Positions 18,033-28,260 of a DNA stretch of 28,260 nt are shown here, in pieces (position 1 is the stretch's first letter; every line of letters starts with the position of its first letter). The notes beneath the pieces were generated by a model, which saw nothing but the letters and a program-made list of their open reading frames with translations, searched no databases and had not been told where the DNA came from. A program made the position numbers and the translations under genes. This DNA is from a virus. Location: the IMG/VR virus record IMGVR_UViG_3300007760_000074, positions 1 to 28,260 of that record; one strand, 5' to 3'.

Positions 18033-19622
18033 GTGGCAAAAATAAGTAAACAAAAGCAGATCAAAGAAATAATCAAGTGTGGTAAAGATCCTGTTTACTT
18101 TGTCAATAAATACGTTCAAATACAGCATCCTACACGGGGGCTAATCCCTTTCGATACATACGCCTTTCAAGACGACTGTTTTAAAGATTTTGTTGAACAT
18201 AGATTTAATATAATTCTCAAATCAAGGCAGTTAGGAATATCCACGTTGACTGCTTGTTATGCGGTTTGGTTAGCCTGTTTCTATAGAGACAAAAACATCC
18301 TAGTCATTGCAACCAAATTGGCTGTGGCACAAAACTTTATTAAAAAAGTAAAAACTGCAATCAAGAGCATGCCGCCATGGTTGACGATTCCTGAGATAAC
18401 TTCTGCCAATAAACAAGGAGTGGAATTCAGCAATGGATCCACCATTAAAGCTGTCCCTACTTCGGACGATGCTGGACGTTCTGAGGCGCTATCTTTGCTG
18501 ATAGTTGACGAGGCTGCGTTTATTAGAAATTTTGATGAGTTATGGATGGGGTTGTATTCTACGCTTTCTACCGGTGGCCGAGCTATAGTTTTATCAACGC
18601 CTAATGGCGTCGGTGACAAGTATCACGAACTGTGTATGGGCGCTGAAAATGGGGAAAATGAATTCAATTTCATTAAACTATTATGGGATGTGCACCCTGA
18701 GAGAGATGCGGAGTGGTTTGAGCTTGAGACCAAAAATATGAGCAGAAAACAGATCGCTCAAGAGTTGATGTGTGACTTCGCTGCTTCTGGAGACACGTTT
18801 TTGTCTCCTCCTGATTTAGAAAAAATTGCAATGCAAACTCAAACGCCGCTAGAAAGGTGGGGCCCCGAGATGGGAGTATGGGTGTGGAAGTATCCGCTTT
18901 CTGAGCACAAATATGTCATCTCGGCCGACGTATCGCGAGGGGACGCGGCAGACTATTCTGCGTTTCATGTATTCGACACAGCTACCTCCGAGCAGGTCGT
19001 CGAATACAAAGGTAAGCTTCCGCCCGATCATTTTGCGGTTCTTTTGGCAGAAGCTGGGAAAAGGTATGGAAATGCACTCGTGTGTCCTGAAAACAACACC
19101 TACGGTTATGCTACAATCATGAAGCTGGTGGAATTAGGATATCCCAACCTATATTTCAAGAACGAAAAAGATAGATTCGCCGCGCTTTACGGTACTGGCC
19201 CTCAAGATGTATCAAAAATCGGATTCCAAACCAACTCCCAGACCCGAGGTCAGGTACTAACAAAATTAGAAGAGGTTATAAGGACAGGGGCTGTAAGATT
19301 CTACTCCCACCGCTTTTATAATGAGCTCAAAACTTTTATATGGAAAGGAACCAAGGCTCAAGCTCAAAAAGGTAAAAACGATGATTTGGTAATATCGGCC
19401 GCTATTGGAGTATGGTTGTTTGATTCCAGTCTTACGCACAGTTCTCAATCGCACGATTTAAACAACGTGATGCTAGCAGGGTTCGCCATGAACAAGAGAG
19501 ATTTCGAAAAATTATCAAACCCGTGGAGTAAGATGGCTTTTAATCCGTTTAGGCCGTACGAAATGTCGAATATGCCACTCTCTGGATCCAGTGATGAAAT
19601 AGATTACAGCTGGGTTTTATAG
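18033..19622 (+). CDS. terL: Terminase large subunit (gp17-like packaging ATPase-nuclease)
   Basis: 529 aa with GTG start 5 bases after the previous stop; no clear ribosome binding site, so coupling is likely. ATPase: Walker A-type loop LKSRQLGIST with K63 at its beginning and isoleucine (I69) where T4 has lysine; Walker B SLLIVDEAAF with D159/E160; motif III IVLSTPNG (185-192). Nuclease (RNase H fold): D299 in YVISADVSRG, E353 in CPENN and D450/D451 in KNDDLVIS, matching the three-acid site of T4 gp17. It cuts concatemers and pumps DNA into the prohead through the portal encoded next. In T4, tail sheath and tube genes separate it from the portal; here only 46 bases do. Confidence 0.95.
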   Translation: MAKISKQKQIKEIIKCGKDPVYFVNKYVQIQHPTRGLIPFDTYAFQDDCFKDFVEHRFNIILKSRQLGISTLTACYAVWLACFYRDKNILVIATKLAVAQNFIKKVKTAIKSMPPWLTIPEITSANKQGVEFSNGSTIKAVPTSDDAGRSEALSLLIVDEAAFIRNFDELWMGLYSTLSTGGRAIVLSTPNGVGDKYHELCMGAENGENEFNFIKLLWDVHPERDAEWFELETKNMSRKQIAQELMCDFAASGDTFLSPPDLEKIAMQTQTPLERWGPEMGVWVWKYPLSEHKYVISADVSRGDAADYSAFHVFDTATSEQVVEYKGKLPPDHFAVLLAEAGKRYGNALVCPENNTYGYATIMKLVELGYPNLYFKNEKDRFAALYGTGPQDVSKIGFQTNSQTRGQVLTKLEEVIRTGAVRFYSHRFYNELKTFIWKGTKAQAQKGKNDDLVISAAIGVWLFDSSLTHSSQSHDLNNVMLAGFAMNKRDFEKLSNPWSKMAFNPFRPYEMSNMPLSGSSDEIDYSWVL

Positions 19623-19668: not shown

Positions 19669-21606
19669 ATGCCAAGCCAACCTAGTCTTTTCAATCGGCT
19701 GACCCGCCTTTTTAGGTCCGGGCCTGTTGTTAAACGACGCGTCAAAAATTACCAGCAGCCTGCAGCATCTTCCGCTCTTGAGGTTTTCAAGAGAGCTCAT
19801 AGCGATGTGTATAGCAATACTCTTAGCGCTTACGGATCTTATGATAGAATGTCTCGCTACAGCGATTTTAGCGAGATGGAGACCACCCCAGAGATTGCTG
19901 CAGCCCTAGACATCTATGCTGAAGAAACCGTTTCTTCTGATGAACACGGCGGAGTACTACACATCTACTCAGAGAATAGAAAGATCCAAGAACACTTAGA
20001 GCACTTGTTTCAAGACGTATTAAACGTAGAATTTAATCTAGTAATGTGGGTTCGAAACCTCTGTAAATACGGAGATTTTTTTCTTTTCAACGACGTGTCT
20101 CCGGAGTATGGAGTCGTTGCAGTCTACCCTGTTCCAATCAGTGAGATAGAACGAGAAGAGGGTTTCGATCCTGATGATCCGATGGCGGTGAGGTTTCGGT
20201 GGGTAACTCAAGGGAATCAACTTTTAGAAAACTGGCAAGTGTCACACTTTAGGCTCCTAGGCAACGATGCTTTTTTACCATATGGTAATTCTGTCCTGGA
20301 AGCAGCCAGAAGGATTTGGCGCCAGCTGATCCTCATAGAGGATGCCATGTTAGTATACAGGGTGATCAGAGCACCTGAGCGTCGAGTCTTTTATATCGAT
20401 GTTGGCAATGTGCCACCCGAGGACGTTGCTAACTATCTTGAGCAAGCTCAATCTTCGTTGAAAAGGAATCAAGTCGTAGACAGAGACAACGGAAAAGTCG
20501 ACTTGCGATACAATCCGTTGAGTGTTGATGAGGATTACTTCCTCCCAGTGCGAGGCGGCGAATCCGGCACGAAGATTGATACCTTGGCCGGCGGCCAAAA
20601 TACAGCGGCAATTGAGGACGTCGAGTATATCCAAAAGAAGCTGTTTGCTGCGTTGAAGATCCCTAGGGCTTATCTGGGGTATGACGAGGATGTTGGAGCT
20701 AAGGCGACGTTAGCACAGGAAGACATTAGGTTCTCTAGAACGATTCAAAGGATCCAAAAAACTGTTATTTCAGAGTTGAATAAGGTTGCCATGATCCACC
20801 TATATTGCCATGGGTACGAAGGCGAAGAACTAGCAGATTTCGAATTACGATTATCGAATCCTTCTACCATTGCACAACAACAAAAACTCGAGCTTATCCG
20901 CACTAGGTTCGAAATTGCGGGTACCGCTCCCGAAGGCACTGTTAATAGAGGGTGGATACAAAAAAATGTTCTGGGCTTGACGAACGAAGAAATCAAAGAT
21001 GTTTTCAAGGGGCGCATTCAAGATAAGATAGATGATGCCGAAATCGAGAGTACTGAAGTTCCTGGTGGTGCTGAAGCTGGCGGGGAGATGGGTGCTCCGC
21101 CCGGAGAAGAAGAGGGCGGCGGCCTCTTCGCTGCAGACAATCCGCGGGGAGAGCTGCTGACTGCGCTACCATCCTCTGAGGAAGGCCTCGTTGATGAGTT
21201 CGAAGAAGAAGAGGACTTCGTTTTAAATCTATCAATTGACGATGACGACGCTCCTATTAAGGCACAGAATGCTATCATGAACGCATTTGGCGAGCCAGTT
21301 ACAAAGAGGAGGGTCTCTCGCCACGGACCGGCTAGTACTCACACTCCTGATTTTGCAAAGATGACCATGGTCGGCCGTGCGGGCCGCGGCCAAGACAGTC
21401 TCAACAAGCCTTTTGATGACGATTATATGAAGTCTCCGTTTAAAGAGGCGCAGGAGTCAGCTTCAACGCCTCCCAGGTTGACAGTCGACCTAGTTAAAAC
21501 GCTTGGACGCATGACGAGCAAGATAGGTATATCTAAGCAGACTCTACTTTCTGAGTCTGGCGAAGAATCAGATTTAGGGAGCGAAGACCAAAATGGCGAA
21601 GCATAA
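19669..21606 (+). CDS. Portal protein (gp20-like)
   Basis: 645 aa; ATG with GAGGATAAG at 19660-19668, close to the start. The conserved portal core runs from about residue 55 to 460 and includes DAMLVYRVIRAPERRVFYID (225-244), GGESGTKIDTLAGGQN (296-311) and the helix DVEYIQKKLFAALKIPRAYL (317-336), all with clear counterparts in T4 gp20. Twelve copies would form the ring at one vertex through which TerL pumps DNA; the portal also starts prohead assembly. After residue ~460 there is a tail of ~185 residues absent from T4 gp20 (524 aa). It begins with a Gly/Glu-rich stretch, then a Glu/Asp-rich one (507-527), then a basic region (545-575). The last 14 bases overlap the next gene. Confidence 0.95.
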   Translation: MPSQPSLFNRLTRLFRSGPVVKRRVKNYQQPAASSALEVFKRAHSDVYSNTLSAYGSYDRMSRYSDFSEMETTPEIAAALDIYAEETVSSDEHGGVLHIYSENRKIQEHLEHLFQDVLNVEFNLVMWVRNLCKYGDFFLFNDVSPEYGVVAVYPVPISEIEREEGFDPDDPMAVRFRWVTQGNQLLENWQVSHFRLLGNDAFLPYGNSVLEAARRIWRQLILIEDAMLVYRVIRAPERRVFYIDVGNVPPEDVANYLEQAQSSLKRNQVVDRDNGKVDLRYNPLSVDEDYFLPVRGGESGTKIDTLAGGQNTAAIEDVEYIQKKLFAALKIPRAYLGYDEDVGAKATLAQEDIRFSRTIQRIQKTVISELNKVAMIHLYCHGYEGEELADFELRLSNPSTIAQQQKLELIRTRFEIAGTAPEGTVNRGWIQKNVLGLTNEEIKDVFKGRIQDKIDDAEIESTEVPGGAEAGGEMGAPPGEEEGGGLFAADNPRGELLTALPSSEEGLVDEFEEEEDFVLNLSIDDDDAPIKAQNAIMNAFGEPVTKRRVSRHGPASTHTPDFAKMTMVGRAGRGQDSLNKPFDDDYMKSPFKEAQESASTPPRLTVDLVKTLGRMTSKIGISKQTLLSESGEESDLGSEDQNGEA

Positions 21607-22420
21607 CAAAAAACGCAACGTCGGTCTGTTACACGAACAGCTAGTAAGACACATTAGCGAAAATATCGTCCGAGGTAACAAAAAAAGGGCCGAGCAAGCA
21701 ATTTTAATTTTACAGCACCACTTTAGAGAAGACGCAGAATTATATCGTGAATACAGGCTGTTTAATGCCTTGGTGCACACCAAGGTGCCCGATAGGACTT
21801 TAGCCAGGCAAATCATCACTGAAAGTAAAACTGCTAGCAAAAATCATGATGCAAATAAGTTACGAGTTGAAAAATCTGGTTTGATCAAAGAGATCAATCA
21901 CAAACTGGATGAAGAGAATTTTTACGCCCGAAAGATTGAGAAATACAAGATATTTGCAACTGTCCAAGCTCTTTTAAACGAGTGGCGTGGTGCACAAAAA
22001 CTATCTCCTCACGAGATCGTTAGTTATGAAAGAGTTCTAGAAGATTGGCTCGTTAGGGAGGTAGAAGAGCCTACGCTTAAGTGCAGGTCGAATGCTAATC
22101 CACTGACGCTAAAGATCATGACGGAAAAATTCAATAAAAGATATAAGGTATTTTTAAACGAAGAGCAGCAATCGATGATAGAGAATTGTTTGCGCGGCGA
22201 CGAGGCTGAGTTGAATCGGCAAATTGAGTCTATAAAGCACCGTGCCTTGCGCGCCCTGACCAGCTTCTACCAAAGTTGTGATAACAGTATCCTGCTAGAA
22301 AAAAGAGATCAACTAGAGAAAAAGGTGATGTCCATGGAGTCTAGCTCTACTGGTGAATGTATTTCTAGGGCAATGGTGATTTCAGCTCTAATCAAAGAAC
22401 TGGAGGGTGATGATGAATAA
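21593..22420 (+). CDS. Basic helical protein of unknown function between portal and protease (275 aa)
   Basis: The ATG lies inside the end of the portal gene, with AGGGAG at 21576-21581 (11-base spacing). The product is rich in Lys, Arg and Glu and looks largely alpha-helical (for example RGNKKRAEQAILILQHHF, a long Lys/Glu helix near residue 100, and an EKRDQLEKKVMSME-like run near the end). No catalytic motif is seen. T4 has the small prohead core genes 67 and 68 in this slot, so an analogous core or assembly role is possible. This protein is much larger, and I see no sequence relation. The stop overlaps the protease start. Confidence 0.68.
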   Translation: MAKHNKKRNVGLLHEQLVRHISENIVRGNKKRAEQAILILQHHFREDAELYREYRLFNALVHTKVPDRTLARQIITESKTASKNHDANKLRVEKSGLIKEINHKLDEENFYARKIEKYKIFATVQALLNEWRGAQKLSPHEIVSYERVLEDWLVREVEEPTLKCRSNANPLTLKIMTEKFNKRYKVFLNEEQQSMIENCLRGDEAELNRQIESIKHRALRALTSFYQSCDNSILLEKRDQLEKKVMSMESSSTGECISRAMVISALIKELEGDDE

Positions 22421-23024
22421 AAGAAAGCTTTTGACTGAATGGCTCGCGTTCGAGTACACGCCCGAAATGATTAACGAATCCAGAGAGCAAAACGGCGGCA
22501 AAGTATTGATGAACGGCATCTTGCAGAAGGCTGATACGCTCAATCAAAACGGCAGAATATACCCTGGTCCAATTCTAGAGAGGGAAGTTCGTAACTACCA
22601 AAAGTTTATTCAAGAGAATAGAGCTCTCGGAGAGTTAGATCATCCCGATTCTTCCGTGGTGGAACTCAAGAATGCGTCTCACATAGTGCGCGAAGCATAT
22701 ATGAACGAAGGGGTGTGCTATGGTATTGTTGAATTGTTAGACACGCCGGCCGGTAAAATATTGCAAAGCTTGGTGGAGTCAGGGGTGACTCTAGGGATTT
22801 CCTCTAGGGGAGTCGGAAGCACGAGCCGCGACGGGGACCACGATGTGGTTCAAGATGATTTTCAATTGATCTGTTGGGACTTTGTATCCGAGCCTTCCAC
22901 TCCTGGTGCTTTCATGATGACTGAGGGGAAAGAGTTTACTAACGAAGATCTGCGCAGACACTTTAACAAAACTGATCGCATCGATAGACTCATCAATGAT
23001 GTTTTGGCTTGGGAGGACAACTAA
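22413..23024 (+). CDS. Prohead maturation protease (gp21-like)
   Basis: GGAGGG at 22402-22407 points to ATG at 22413 as the start; an upstream in-frame GTG (22407) and ATG (22410) are too close to it. This gives 203 aa, near the T4 gp21 length of about 212. Motifs: LQKADTLNQNGRIYP near the N-terminus, RALGELDHPDS with catalytic His77, and TLGISSRGVG with the catalytic Ser in the SSRG block (130/131), then an acidic WDFVSEPS segment (D156). This is the serine protease fold of phage and herpesvirus assembly. It is packed in the prohead core, activates itself and cuts scaffold and capsid proteins after (L/I)xE. Candidate substrate sites are seen in the capsid protein, the scaffold and the 134-aa gene at 23428. 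Confidence 0.93.
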   Translation: MNKRKLLTEWLAFEYTPEMINESREQNGGKVLMNGILQKADTLNQNGRIYPGPILEREVRNYQKFIQENRALGELDHPDSSVVELKNASHIVREAYMNEGVCYGIVELLDTPAGKILQSLVESGVTLGISSRGVGSTSRDGDHDVVQDDFQLICWDFVSEPSTPGAFMMTEGKEFTNEDLRRHFNKTDRIDRLINDVLAWEDN

Positions 23025-23428
23025 TGGGACAATGGGTATCATCTAACCACAACGACGCAGATGCATATGTGGGCTCGCCGTTGCCGCACGTAACCGGCTC
23101 GGTAGCCCTCACGACTGCCCCAATGCAATTTAACTTTCCGTATGTGACTAGGTGGGTTCGAGTAATAAATGACGGTGGCGCAGACATCAGAGTGGGATTC
23201 ACAGCAAACGGTGTTAACGCTAACCCTGCTGTAAATTCCAATTATTTTTTATTAGCTGATGCAGCTGGAGATAGGGATTCTGGGGTCATGCCTTTGAAGG
23301 TAGACAGGTTGTTTGTACGAGCCGATGCAGGGACCAGCGCTTGCTCAGTGATAGCCGGGTATACTGCTATTCCGAAAAATCAATTTCTTAAGCTGACTGG
23401 CTCTGAAGGCTTTGAAGGCATAGGATAA
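23024..23428 (+). CDS. Small beta-rich hypothetical protein, possible head decoration or virion protein (134 aa)
   Basis: TAATG overlap with the protease; GGGAGG at 23011-23016 is 7 bases from this ATG, so it is preferred to the in-frame TTG at 23009. The composition is Asn, Ala, Gly, Val and Thr rich with alternating hydrophobic residues (WVRVINDGGADIRVGFTANG, then SACSVIAGYTAIP), which suggests an all-beta fold. There is no signal peptide or membrane segment. By size and place, between protease and scaffold, it could be a capsid decoration or head protein, but I do not recognise a family. The stop overlaps the next start. Confidence 0.65.
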   Translation: MGQWVSSNHNDADAYVGSPLPHVTGSVALTTAPMQFNFPYVTRWVRVINDGGADIRVGFTANGVNANPAVNSNYFLLADAAGDRDSGVMPLKVDRLFVRADAGTSACSVIAGYTAIPKNQFLKLTGSEGFEGIG

Positions 23429-23832
23429 TGGCAAAAATTAGCAAATCCCAACTCAAGGCCGTGGTAAAAGAGTGTCTAGTAGAGATATTGGCCGAAGGCC
23501 TTAACGAAAATTCTATTGCACTAAACAACAAAAAACAAGCTAAAAAGAGGCACCGCGCCGAAGAGAGGCGTTTGGTGGAACATCGTAAAAAGTTTGAGAC
23601 CACGGTAGACACTACAGTGGCACACGTTACTGACGATCCCATCATGCAAAGTATTTTGCAAGACACTGCAAGGACTACACTTCAGGAACAGATTGCGAAT
23701 GAAGCATCTCCTTCCGCTGCAGGCCACTCTATGGCTGCTCCCGCCGTAGGCGGTTCGGCTGCTGGAATCGACTTAGATAATATATTTTCGGGTACTAGCG
23801 ATAATTGGTCTAAATTAGCTTTTAATGAGTAA
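23428..23832 (+). CDS. Hypothetical protein with capsid-targeting-like N-terminus, possible internal head protein (134 aa)
   Basis: ATG overlaps the upstream TAA (TAATG); weak AGGA at 23422-23425. Residues 1-23 form a short amphipathic basic helix ending L21-A22-E23 before G24 (VEILAEGLNE). This matches the (L/I)xE|(A/G) rule of the gp21 protease and recalls the N-terminal capsid-targeting peptides removed from T4 internal proteins. After it come a very basic helical stretch (NKKQAKKRHRAEERRLVEHR) and an Ala/Ser-rich, then acidic C-terminus. The combination fits a DNA-associated internal or core protein. I know of no sequence family for it. The role is inferred from motif and place only. Confidence 0.66.
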   Translation: MAKISKSQLKAVVKECLVEILAEGLNENSIALNNKKQAKKRHRAEERRLVEHRKKFETTVDTTVAHVTDDPIMQSILQDTARTTLQEQIANEASPSAAGHSMAAPAVGGSAAGIDLDNIFSGTSDNWSKLAFNE

Positions 23833-23890: not shown

Positions 23891-24175
23891 ATGTCGCGAC
23901 GAGTAAGAAGGATAACCCCAGCAGTACTAAAAAAGATGATCGTTGACGAGGCTCGCAAGCTTAGAACCGAGGTTCTAGAGACCGGGCAGTCAGATGTAGA
24001 AAAGGTGGCTAAGGCAGCTCCGGAAGTTGATGCCGGAGACTTGGCTGATTCGTTAGAGAAAGACATTGATTTTGTTAAAGCACTTAAAATCAAAGAAGCT
24101 CGCTTGGCTCGTAGATTACGAGAAGTTAGAAAGACCAAGGATCAGCTTCGTAAGCGCATCACTAAGAGGATATAG
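23891..24175 (+). CDS. Small, highly charged helical protein of unknown function (94 aa)
   Basis: Strong ribosome binding site. The N-terminus (MSRRVRRITPAVLKKMI) and C-terminus (a run of Arg/Lys with heptad-like spacing after residue 70, ending RKRITKRI) are very basic, while the middle (~45-60) is acidic. It is almost entirely predicted helix, probably coiled coil. No family is recognised. T4 prohead core proteins are similarly small and charged, so a core or DNA-binding head role is possible. It is the first gene after the second CATAAATA element, followed by five more head-region genes. Confidence 0.68.
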   Translation: MSRRVRRITPAVLKKMIVDEARKLRTEVLETGQSDVEKVAKAAPEVDAGDLADSLEKDIDFVKALKIKEARLARRLREVRKTKDQLRKRITKRI

Positions 24176-25969: not shown

Positions 25970-27580
25970 ATGAGCAAAACACTTTATGAAGAGGCAGTTG
26001 CTGACGCTCGAAAGCTAAGAGAGTTAGCCGAAGAGACGGCAAAAAATCGTGTTGTTGAAGCAGTAATGCCGCAAATCCGAGACCTGGTCAACAGGCGCAT
26101 TTTGGGCGAGCAGTTAGACGAATTCGCTGAAGAAGACTTGGCGGCCCCTGAAGACGAGTTTGCTCCTTCTGTAATCGTGGATCTGCCACAAGAGGACGAA
26201 GTCGACACAGCATCCGAGGAAGCCGGCTCAGAATCAGAAGCCCGGCATACGCACGTCAGCGTTGCTGCTGACGGCTCTGTTAAGGTCGACGTTGACTCTA
26301 CTGAAGAAGAAGGCGTGTCTGACGAATTTGTGCTCACGGATACGATGGCCGAAGCTTTAGGAAGAATCATTCGCGGAGAATCGTCTGAGAGTGAGCGATT
26401 ATATGCCGTAGAAGAAACGGTCGCAAAAATAAAGAAGTTGTTAAAAACTGTCAATGAGAACCAGTTGACAGTGCACCAACGAGAAAAACTACATTTTTCT
26501 TTCAACCGGTGTCTAAAAGAAGTATTGAGTTTACGTGGTTCGATCATACTTAGTGAATTGAATACTCAAGAAAAGCTTGAGCAAAGGTTGACAGAGGTTA
26601 TTAAGGAGATGAAGGACATGTCAAAGTCAAACCGGCAAAATATTTTTGATTTTCTCTTCGAGGCAGATGATGATCACCTCGGCGAGGCTGATATTGCATT
26701 AACACTAGCAGACGACGAGGTCGAAGACCTGGTAGCTGCCGAGGATGCTGATGCAGTAGATGCAGCTTTAGATGATATTCTAGCTGCAGCCGAACTCTCT
26801 CTTGGCGAGCCCGAAGAGGTCGACGTCGACGTTGAAGAGGAAGAGGTCGAGGTTACCGATGAAGAAGGCGGAGAGGCTGTAGCGGTTGAAGACGAGTTTG
26901 CTTTCGAAGAAGGCTCCGGGCCCGTCTATGAAATCGATGAGAGCATGCTCCGTCGAGAGATTCGTCGCATGCGGCAGCTGCGTGAGCAAGATGCCGGCCG
27001 AGCAACTGAAGCAGATCCTGCATTAGCTCATGGCGGCGAAGACCTCGGTGACGTAGTATTAGACGTTGATGAAGACGATCTCATTAATGCACTCGCTGAC
27101 GAGCTTGGCGATCCGGGCGTGCCGGCGCCGGTTGTTGAGCGTCGACGTCGCCGTGCTCCTCGTCGCCGTGCTCCTCGCCGATCGAATCGCACCGCCATGG
27201 CCGAGTCGCGTCGAGCGCGCAGCCAAGTTGGACAGTATCGCAATGCGCTGTCCGGCATGAAGAAGCAGTTGGTAGAAATGAACCTTTTCAATGCCAAGCT
27301 CCTCTATGCTAACAAGCTCATGCAAAATAAGAACCTTTCTGTGAAGCAGCAACGAGCAATTGTCGAGGCTTTAGATAATGCCAAGACGCTTCGTGAAGCC
27401 AAGCTTCTCTATAAGAGCCTGTCGGAGTCCCTCTCCCGACGCGTTCGCGGCAATAAACTTAATGAGGGAGCTTTACGGACGCTCGGATCGTCTTCCAGAT
27501 CAACCCGGTCGGCTCAGCCGGCTTCTAGTGGAGTTGAGGTAGATCGATGGGCAGTCCTCGCTGGTATCAGCAATGACTAA
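25970..27580 (+). CDS. Prohead core scaffold protein (gp22-like), long form
   Basis: 536 aa, about twice T4 gp22 (269 aa); ATG with AGGTGA at 25961-25966. It sits directly before the capsid gene, as gene 22 does in T4. An N-terminal helix (ARKLRELAEETAKNRVVEAV) leads into a strongly acidic body. The C-terminal part, residues ~420-490 (MNLFNAKLLYANKLMQ, LREAKLLYKSLSES), has the style of scaffold C-termini in T4-like phages. Several (L/I)xE sites are candidate cuts for the protease: LFEA and LGEA near 231 and 238, and LNEG near the end. A basic island of two RRRAP repeats lies at 393-402. An internal ATG at 26618 with its own ribosome binding site may give a 320-aa product. The scaffold shapes the prohead and is degraded on maturation. 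Confidence 0.82.
   Translation: MSKTLYEEAVADARKLRELAEETAKNRVVEAVMPQIRDLVNRRILGEQLDEFAEEDLAAPEDEFAPSVIVDLPQEDEVDTASEEAGSESEARHTHVSVAADGSVKVDVDSTEEEGVSDEFVLTDTMAEALGRIIRGESSESERLYAVEETVAKIKKLLKTVNENQLTVHQREKLHFSFNRCLKEVLSLRGSIILSELNTQEKLEQRLTEVIKEMKDMSKSNRQNIFDFLFEADDDHLGEADIALTLADDEVEDLVAAEDADAVDAALDDILAAAELSLGEPEEVDVDVEEEEVEVTDEEGGEAVAVEDEFAFEEGSGPVYEIDESMLRREIRRMRQLREQDAGRATEADPALAHGGEDLGDVVLDVDEDDLINALADELGDPGVPAPVVERRRRRAPRRRAPRRSNRTAMAESRRARSQVGQYRNALSGMKKQLVEMNLFNAKLLYANKLMQNKNLSVKQQRAIVEALDNAKTLREAKLLYKSLSESLSRRVRGNKLNEGALRTLGSSSRSTRSAQPASSGVEVDRWAVLAGISND
26618..27580 (+). CDS. Possible nested scaffold product from an in-frame internal start (320 aa)
   Basis: ATG at 26618 (codon 217 of the long scaffold frame) is preceded by AAGGAG at 26603-26608 with 9-base spacing. 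Its N-terminus, MSKSNRQNIFDFLFE followed by A, looks like a short targeting peptide ending in a gp21-type cleavage site. The resulting length is close to T4 gp22. It could be a second, shorter scaffold as in the nested lambda C/Nu3 pair, or the original gene to which an upstream gene became fused. The reading frame is certain; use of this start is inferred. Confidence 0.4.
   Translation: MSKSNRQNIFDFLFEADDDHLGEADIALTLADDEVEDLVAAEDADAVDAALDDILAAAELSLGEPEEVDVDVEEEEVEVTDEEGGEAVAVEDEFAFEEGSGPVYEIDESMLRREIRRMRQLREQDAGRATEADPALAHGGEDLGDVVLDVDEDDLINALADELGDPGVPAPVVERRRRRAPRRRAPRRSNRTAMAESRRARSQVGQYRNALSGMKKQLVEMNLFNAKLLYANKLMQNKNLSVKQQRAIVEALDNAKTLREAKLLYKSLSESLSRRVRGNKLNEGALRTLGSSSRSTRSAQPASSGVEVDRWAVLAGISND
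27146..27175 (+). repeat. Two perfect tandem 15-base repeats coding RRRAP-RRRAP
   Basis: The unit CGTCGCCGTGCTCCT occurs twice head to tail without mismatch inside the scaffold gene. It encodes an Arg-rich patch (continuing as Arg-Arg after the repeat) in an otherwise acidic protein. Identical codon choice in both copies points to a recent duplication. Confidence 0.85.
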
Positions 27581-27609: not shown

Positions 27610-28260
27610 ATGTCTAAGTCATTCAATTTGGATCAGCTGACTGAAGGCATCCGCCAGAGAAATCTTGGAGGACAGAATAAGCAGCTGGTTGAAAAGTGGT
27701 CCCGTACGGGCCTGCTTAGAGGCCTCGACGGAGTTCACCGCGAGAACATGGCTCGAATCCTGGAAAATCAGGCCGGCCAAGTTCTTAAGGAGGCTTCTTC
27801 GATTTCGACCGGTGGCGGTAACCTGACTAGCTCGGGCGACCTCCGCGGTTTCACCAATATCGCATTTCCGATCGTGCGCCGAGTTTTCGGCGGTTTGATC
27901 GCGAATGAGCTCGTTTCCATCCAGCCCATGAGCCTGCCTTCTGGCCTGCTCTTCTATCTGGATTATACCTACGGCTCGACGCAGGGCACCGGCGGTCTTA
28001 CCGGCCAGGGCGCTGCATATAACACTGGTTCGTCCATTTACAGTTTGCCTACGGGCAAGGGTGTTCGTTCTGGTTCGAAAGCCGTTGGCGGCCTTTATGA
28101 CCTTGCCGGTCAGGGCTACTCGCGCGTGTACTCGTCCTTCGCTTGCACAGCGATAGCAGACCTGTTGCTTTCTGGCGCAGTTCGTGGTACGAACGGCCAG
28201 ATTACTGCTGGAAATGTTGCAGAGGCAACCGGTTCTGATGGAAAGTACTTACAGTTCGAT
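27610..28260 (+). CDS. Major capsid protein (gp23-like), 3' end outside window
   Basis: ATG with AAGGAG at 27597-27602 (7-base spacing); 217 codons are visible, open to the right edge. It is recognised by ILENQ at 50-54, the block PIVRRVFGGLIANELVSIQP (residues 87-106; T4 has MVRRAIPNLIAFDICGVQP) and MSLPSG. The N-terminal region ends in VLKE61|A62, a gp21-type cleavage site at nearly the T4 position (E65|A66), so the first 61 residues should be removed on maturation. A Gly/Ser-rich stretch at 123-160 follows the conserved block. It assembles around the scaffold into the HK97-fold shell. Compared with the upstream genes, synonymous choices lean to C-ending codons, as expected for the most abundant protein. 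Confidence 0.95.
   Translation, partial: MSKSFNLDQLTEGIRQRNLGGQNKQLVEKWSRTGLLRGLDGVHRENMARILENQAGQVLKEASSISTGGGNLTSSGDLRGFTNIAFPIVRRVFGGLIANELVSIQPMSLPSGLLFYLDYTYGSTQGTGGLTGQGAAYNTGSSIYSLPTGKGVRSGSKAVGGLYDLAGQGYSRVYSSFACTAIADLLLSGAVRGTNGQITAGNVAEATGSDGKYLQFD

What the first reader, a model, noticed from the sequence alone, without database searches (positions are those of the whole stretch)
23428..23499. Capsid-targeting-like N-terminus on an unknown 134-aa protein
The first 23 residues end in L-A-E|G, the prohead protease rule, ahead of a very basic helix. T4 internal proteins use just such a short leader to be packed in the prohead, then cut and delivered with the DNA. This gene may encode an injected protein that acts in the host.
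Basis: inference. Interest (0 to 1): 0.6.

Follow-up and report, generated by a model that had tools for sequence, protein, structure and literature searches.

The report
Prohead-targeting leader on phage head protein
An unknown protein beside the head protease gene of an uncultured T4-like phage begins with a strictly conserved 23-residue leader that looks like a "pack me into the head, then cut here" tag, and related giant phages put the same kind of leader on dozens of otherwise unrelated proteins.

Summary
The 134-aa gene (23428-23832) begins MAKISKSQLKAVVKECLVEILAE|G, just downstream of a gp21-type (S77) prohead protease in a T4-like head cluster. A single L-x-E|G proves nothing, but 61 of 63 distinct homologues keep [LI]-x-E there, followed by Gly or Ser. 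The leader is the most constrained part of the protein (pN/pS 0.11, against 0.47 for the linker behind it). Prohead targeting is therefore well supported, though unproven. The 'injected effector' reading of this gene is weaker: it is single-copy, syntenic and universal in the clade, so I favour a cleaved prohead-core protein. The wider discovery: the adjacent 94-aa gene carries the same leader in the same register, and giant relatives place it (MKITKRQLRRIIKEEKARLLxE) on up to about 30 unrelated proteins per genome, often in tandem arrays (95 proteins, 72 body families in the contigs read). Every leader-bearing viral contig tested that includes a head cluster also has the S77 protease and the 134-aa family. 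Many array leaders (about half) lack a nearby L-x-E, so cleavage is not universal. This resembles the T4 capsid-targeting strategy, with an unrelated tag, in an uncultured lineage and on a larger scale. Virion mass spectrometry is missing.

The parts
23428..23832 (+). 134-aa gene carrying the leader; no Pfam or PHROG family
   Evidence: ORF; no family at E<=1e-3 for it, only weak inconsistent hits for the family; homologues in 81 ORF records, 63 distinct, syntenic
23428..23496 (+). leader, residues 1-23, MAKISKSQLKAVVKECLVEILAE
   Evidence: most conserved part of the family; invariant K10 K14 E15 C16 L17 E19 L21; pN/pS 0.11
23494..23499 (+). predicted prohead-protease bond E23|G24
   Evidence: [LI]-x-E in 61/63 homologues, P1' Gly 59 and Ser 2; fits the T4 gp21 rule L/I-X-E (PMC9026906)
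23524..23592 (+). basic linker, residues 33-55; hypervariable in length and sequence
   Evidence: alignment; mean charge +4.5 in the family
23629..23691 (+). conserved middle motif TDDPIMQSILQDTARTTLQEQ
   Evidence: alignment; predicted helix 71-92
23803..23823 (+). C-terminal motif NWSKLAF (family NWAxLAF)
   Evidence: W127 invariant, A131 and F132 at least 90%; found on no other gene of the contigs read
22407..23024 (+). S77 prohead protease (T4 gp21 type), the enzyme expected to cut the leader; its own MTE173|G is kept in 66/66 and MINE24|S in 65/66
   Evidence: PF03420 3.6e-23; PHROG 207 head maturation protease
23891..24175 (+). 94-aa neighbour with the same leader type (RITPAVLKKMIVDEARKLRTE at its N-terminus)
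   Evidence: same register, L/I/V/M-x-E at +7/+8 in about half of the family; found by the array-leader HMM
25970..27580 (+). acidic scaffold-like protein (gp22 position) with many conserved L-x-E sites; predicted docking partner of the leader
   Evidence: position and composition; IVE466|A, LRE476|A, LNE499|G/S kept in nearly all
27610..28260 (+). gp23-like major capsid protein, cut by the window end; LKE61|A matches the place of the T4 gp23 cut
   Evidence: [LIVM]-x-E in 41/41, P1' Ala 32
19669..21606 (+). portal protein (T4 gp20 type)
   Evidence: PF07230 7.4e-79
18033..19622 (+). large terminase position, upstream of the portal
   Evidence: sequence and synteny with annotated terminases of Mel-JY01 and immuto

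Best explanation
Residues 1-23 are a capsid-targeting-type propeptide. During head assembly the basic-amphipathic helix binds the scaffold core (inferred), which brings the 134-aa protein into the prohead. The S77 protease then cuts after E23 (inferred from a conserved rule), releasing the G24 fragment from the core. The protein itself is most likely a constant prohead-core or internal head protein, by position like T4 gp67/gp68, rather than a variable host-acting effector. The same leader type is reused by the adjacent 94-aa protein and, in larger relatives, by tens of unrelated accessory proteins that would be the packaged and injected cargo.
For: The head cluster holds an S77 protease and T4-type portal. 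Site kept in 61/63 homologues. Leader under the strongest purifying selection. The clade's capsid protein, scaffold and protease keep L-x-E sites, including a C-terminal protease site like the autocleavage reported in SPN3US. Unrelated bodies share the leader: 95 proteins, 72 body clusters. An HMM built from array leaders alone, run over 6591 head-locus ORFs, picks at E<=0.1 only the 134-aa family (17), the 94-aa family (6) and 4 array-type genes. [LI]-x-E after the array leaders is enriched: 45/95 against 23.4 +/- 3.8 shuffled and 16/95 just downstream, with E at the same +8 register as E23 in 22. All 13 strict-leader viral contigs carrying a head cluster have both the S77 protease and the 134-aa family; the 9 without the protease also lack portal and capsid genes. 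The leader is almost absent from 257 Gb of cellular genomes: 2 hits, one in a genome that also holds the 134-aa gene. As positive control, the unsupervised N-terminus scan recovers the T4 ipII/ipIII leader pair. In T4, Asp in place of the Glu blocks cutting but not targeting, and 2 of 63 homologues have exactly Asp.
Against: No proteomics or experiment. 41 of 95 array leaders continue without a second Glu, and only 7 of these have a nearby [LI]-x-E (background level), so cleavage is not a property of the whole leader class. P1' after array leaders is not restricted to Ala/Gly/Ser. Association with the S77 protease cannot be separated from shared ancestry of the clade. AlphaFold2 puts the bond inside one long helix (residues 6-67), not in a flexible loop. 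Invariant K14, E15, C16 and E19 exceed what a cut site needs. Closest relatives G001-G003 (about 106-113 kb, possibly incomplete) have at most one array-type gene.
Confidence: 0.6

Rival explanations
1. The leader is an uncut docking helix. The 134-aa protein is a structural or scaffold-associated protein whose N-terminus binds core or shell, and L-x-E|G is part of the helix surface, not a cut site.
For: Helix residues around the site (K14, E15, C16, E19) are as conserved as L21/E23/G24; AlphaFold2 helix runs through the bond; many array leaders lack L-x-E.
Against: Gly or Ser directly after the Glu in 61/63, with hypervariable sequence two residues later, marks a boundary. In a giant relative with many leaders about five residues longer, the L-x-E moves outward and is kept (G035). 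The same rule holds in capsid, scaffold and protease.
Confidence: 0.2
2. One reading: the 134-aa protein is itself an injected protein that acts in the host, like T4 IPI or Alt.
For: Leader like the T4 strategy; basic linker; small size.
Against: Single copy per genome, fixed place just downstream of the protease in all relatives, and conserved C-terminal motif, whereas T4 internal proteins vary and lie outside the head cluster; mature protein not basic overall; no enzyme or effector family.
Confidence: 0.15
3. The recurring leader is unrelated to the head, for example a nucleic-acid or membrane-binding helix or a recombination and translation module that spreads by gene shuffling.
For: Arrays are tandem with short overlaps, and some ORFs hold a second internal leader copy, as if neighbouring genes had fused; leader DNA is partly similar.
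Against: Same-residue codons differ in about 40% of comparisons, so the protein sequence is what is kept. The two constant bearers sit in the head cluster. L-x-E is enriched at the leader end.
Confidence: 0.05

Closest known systems
T4 capsid-targeting sequence of internal proteins IPI/IPII/IPIII and Alt (PMC9026906, PMC3012670)
   Same: Short N-terminal leader shared by unrelated bodies, ending in L/I-x-E, in a phage with an S77 protease; targeting part upstream of the cut part.
   Different: No sequence relation shown; 23 residues instead of 10-19; also present on two constant head-cluster genes; up to about 30 bearers per genome instead of a handful; cut site missing from many array bearers.
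T4 gp67/gp68 prohead core proteins
   Same: Small proteins next to the protease gene in the head cluster, with L-x-E sites.
   Different: No detectable homology; in T4 they precede the protease gene, here the gene follows it.
SPN3US/phiKZ head-protein propeptides (PMC5694885)
   Same: N-terminal propeptides cut after Glu, thought to target head proteins; identical N-termini on two diverged paralogues; C-terminal protease autocleavage.
   Different: Longer propeptides, A-x-E or S-x-E rule, ejection proteins of other families.
154-aa protein after the protease of Microcystis phage Mel-JY01 (WWT39310.1)
   Same: Directly downstream of the protease; leader region aligns (YQKIVQEVVREVIAE|N against LKAVVKECLVEILAE|G, pairwise E 0.004).
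   Different: No similarity beyond the leader and hhalign probability only 8%; a lead only.

Membership tests
T4-type capsid-targeting sequence (as a mechanism) | Short N-terminal propeptide shared by proteins with unrelated bodies | tested here: met
   95 leader proteins in 72 body clusters, plus 134-aa and 94-aa families
T4-type capsid-targeting sequence (as a mechanism) | Ends in L/I-x-E, the gp21 cleavage rule | tested here: met
   61/63 for the 134-aa family; only part of the array class (45/95)
T4-type capsid-targeting sequence (as a mechanism) | Phage encodes an S77 prohead protease | tested here: met
   PF03420 in the window and in all 13 leader contigs that carry a head cluster
T4-type capsid-targeting sequence (as a mechanism) | Protein is packaged in the prohead and cut there | not testable with these tools
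   needs virion or prohead mass spectrometry
T4-type capsid-targeting sequence (sequence family) | Sequence homology to the T4 CTS | tested here: not met
   window leader has no counterpart among the T4 N-termini read; only the G007 variant MKLLREYIRELLKE resembles it by eye
T4 gp67 or gp68 | Profile homology | tested here: not met
   hhalign probability below 1%
T4 internal protein (injected effector) | Basic mature protein, variable among relatives, outside the head cluster | tested here: not met
   mature net charge -2, syntenic in the head cluster, conserved motifs
T4-type S77 head cluster | T4-type portal, protease, scaffold and gp23 in order | tested here: met
   PF07230 and PF03420 hits; gp23-like and scaffold-like genes by sequence and synteny

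The most novel reading that the evidence does not exclude
A lineage of uncultured, largely marine T4-like giant phages runs a modular address-tag system: one leader type, fixed on two head-cluster proteins, is grafted onto dozens of small unrelated proteins kept in tandem arrays, which are packaged in the head, in part cut, and delivered with the DNA. The leader alone would then read out the injected protein repertoire of these phages from sequence.
Probability: 0.42. Interest if true: 0.82.

Novelty: new variant of a known kind. Interest (0 to 1): 0.6.

Why it matters
T4 uses a leader to pack a handful of internal proteins, at least one of which disarms a host defence. If the leader described here does the same, one sequence motif would mark the head cargo of a large uncultured phage group, some genomes with about 30 such genes of unknown function. 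Those would be prime candidates for anti-defence or takeover proteins, and the leader would be a new tag for loading proteins into phage heads. It also suggests a role for a so far nameless, universally kept head-cluster gene.

Tried and rejected
Family searches with the protein and its 39-member alignment gave nothing usable. No nucleotide or translated match in 50,697 phage records for the gene; short leader queries there returned one marginal record or none, probably because of low-complexity filtering. Homology to T4 gp67/gp68 rejected. The idea that the C-terminal NWAxLAF motif is also a shared tag was rejected: it occurs only in this family among the contigs read. Body annotation of ten array proteins gave only sub-threshold hits such as EF-hand. 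A scan from the most divergent homologue added only two distant relatives. Literature searches for the leader letters found nothing in the open-access library, and targeted searches found no report of such arrays.

Full report
What is there. The window is a 28-kb fragment of an uncultured T4-like phage. From 18033 on it carries terminase, portal (PF07230), a 275-aa protein, an S77 prohead protease (PF03420), a 139-aa protein, the 134-aa protein of the finding, a 94-aa protein, three further unknowns, an acidic scaffold-like protein and a gp23-like capsid protein cut by the end.

Is the site more than chance? Alone it is weak, since the protein has four [LI]-x-E tripeptides. But relatives of the protein were found just downstream of the protease in IMG/VR contigs (81 ORF records, 63 distinct). 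The leader MAK[IVL][TS][KR]xxLKxxVKECLVEILxE|G is their best conserved part. [LI]-x-E is kept in 61/63, followed by Gly (59) or Ser (2); the two exceptions have Asp. Directly behind it lies a hypervariable basic linker. pN/pS is 0.11 in the leader, 0.47 in the linker, 0.19 in the middle motif and 0.34 at the C-terminus, with saturated and similar pS, so selection acts on the leader protein sequence.

Does the rule hold in this clade? Scanning all head-cluster families for conserved [LIVM]-x-E columns recovers a site at the place of the T4 gp23 cut in the capsid protein (E61|A, 41/41), a C-terminal MTE173|G in the protease (66/66) and several sites in the scaffold. T4 gp21 cuts after L/I-X-E (PMC9026906), and C-terminal protease autocleavage is known in SPN3US (PMC5694885).

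The unexpected part. Reading large contigs that carry the 134-aa family showed the same leader on many other genes, typically MKITKRQLRRIIKEEKARLLxE: 32 in G016, 19 in G035, 17 in G015, 12 each in G009 and G024, few or none in the others. The 95 bodies fall into 72 clusters. In G016 they form a near-continuous array at about 146-161 kb. An unsupervised comparison of N-termini between genes with unrelated bodies gives 474 pairs in G016, 205 in G035 and 170 in G015, against none for internal segments; in T4 it recovers ipII/ipIII, which share the known capsid-targeting sequence. G007 uses a second leader, MKLLREYIRELLKE, on eight genes.

Are the leaders one thing? An HMM built only from array leaders and run over 6591 ORFs of the head loci returned, at E<=0.1, 17 members of the 134-aa family, 6 of the 94-aa family and 4 array-type genes, nothing else; the window's own copy scores weakly (E 0.31). 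The registers agree to the end: Glu lies 8 residues after the core KE in the 134-aa family, in 22 array leaders and in 19 of 62 sequences of the 94-aa family. In G035 many leaders are about five residues longer and the L-x-E lies correspondingly further out.

Limits. [LI]-x-E follows 45 of 95 array leaders (shuffled 23.4 +/- 3.8). In leaders with core+E it is 38/54, in the others 7/41, which is background. So cutting is likely for the 134-aa protein and part of the arrays, not for all. In T4 targeting and cutting are separable, so an uncut targeted class is possible.

Distribution. A strict DNA pattern for the array leader hits 54 stretches in IMG/VR and two in 257 Gb of cellular genomes, one of which lies in a genome that also holds a 134-aa homologue. 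Of 22 viral contigs tested, 13 have both the S77 protease and the 134-aa family; the other 9 lack protease, portal and gp23 and so do not contain a head cluster. One of those nine has a marginal 134-family hit covering the leader region only (G029, E 7.6e-4). Linkage to the protease is therefore complete where it can be seen, but shared ancestry would produce the same picture.

Mechanism. Shown: conservation, register, recurrence on unrelated bodies, synteny with the protease. Inferred: the helix binds the scaffold core, delivers the protein into the prohead, the protease cuts E23|G24, and the mature part stays or leaves. Because the 134-aa protein is single, universal and syntenic, has conserved middle and C-terminal motifs and is not basic overall, I place it as a core or internal head protein rather than an injected effector. 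No homology to T4 gp67/gp68 was found. AlphaFold2 (mean pLDDT 78) gives a helix 6-67, a helix 71-92 and a short C-terminal helix; the linker of other homologues is often Pro/Ser-rich, so the long helix through the bond may not be general.

Verdict. Observation confirmed; interpretation partly supported; a new variant of the capsid-targeting strategy, with a larger cargo system as the interesting, still unproven, extension.

Noticed in passing
G016 contig (IMGVR_UViG_3300020477_000013) about 146-161 kb, loci L137-L138: Near-continuous array of small ORFs, most starting with MKITKRQLRRIIKEE-type leaders and carrying different bodies.
   Followed up: partly
L138:1296-2948, L217:12981-13757, L241:10677-11354, L127:12941-13906: Some leader ORFs hold a second, internal copy of the leader at the start of a second module, as if two neighbouring array genes had fused in frame.
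   Followed up: partly
G007 contig (IMGVR_UViG_3300020473_002200) about 150-156.5 kb, locus L127: A different shared N-terminus, MKLLREYIRELLKE, on eight genes with unrelated bodies; by eye nearer to the T4 IPII/IPIII leader.
   Followed up: partly
Flavobacterium phage immuto NC_055915.1, loci L270-L278: Several genes with unrelated bodies share N-termini such as MENFDLKKFLVENKLTxNSKLLKE or MKKQILSEQFxRMQxLAGIITES, suggesting other lineage-specific leaders in T4-like phages.
   Followed up: no
window 18033-19622: The terminase C-terminal part contains NPWSKMAF, similar to the C-terminal NWSKLAF of the 134-aa protein; no other gene of the large contigs matched the motif.
   Followed up: partly
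L279 (NHDW01000006.1, 306-kb contig in a Methylococcaceae MAG): The leader pattern and a 134-aa homologue occur in the same metagenome bin, probably a giant phage binned with a bacterium.
   Followed up: partly
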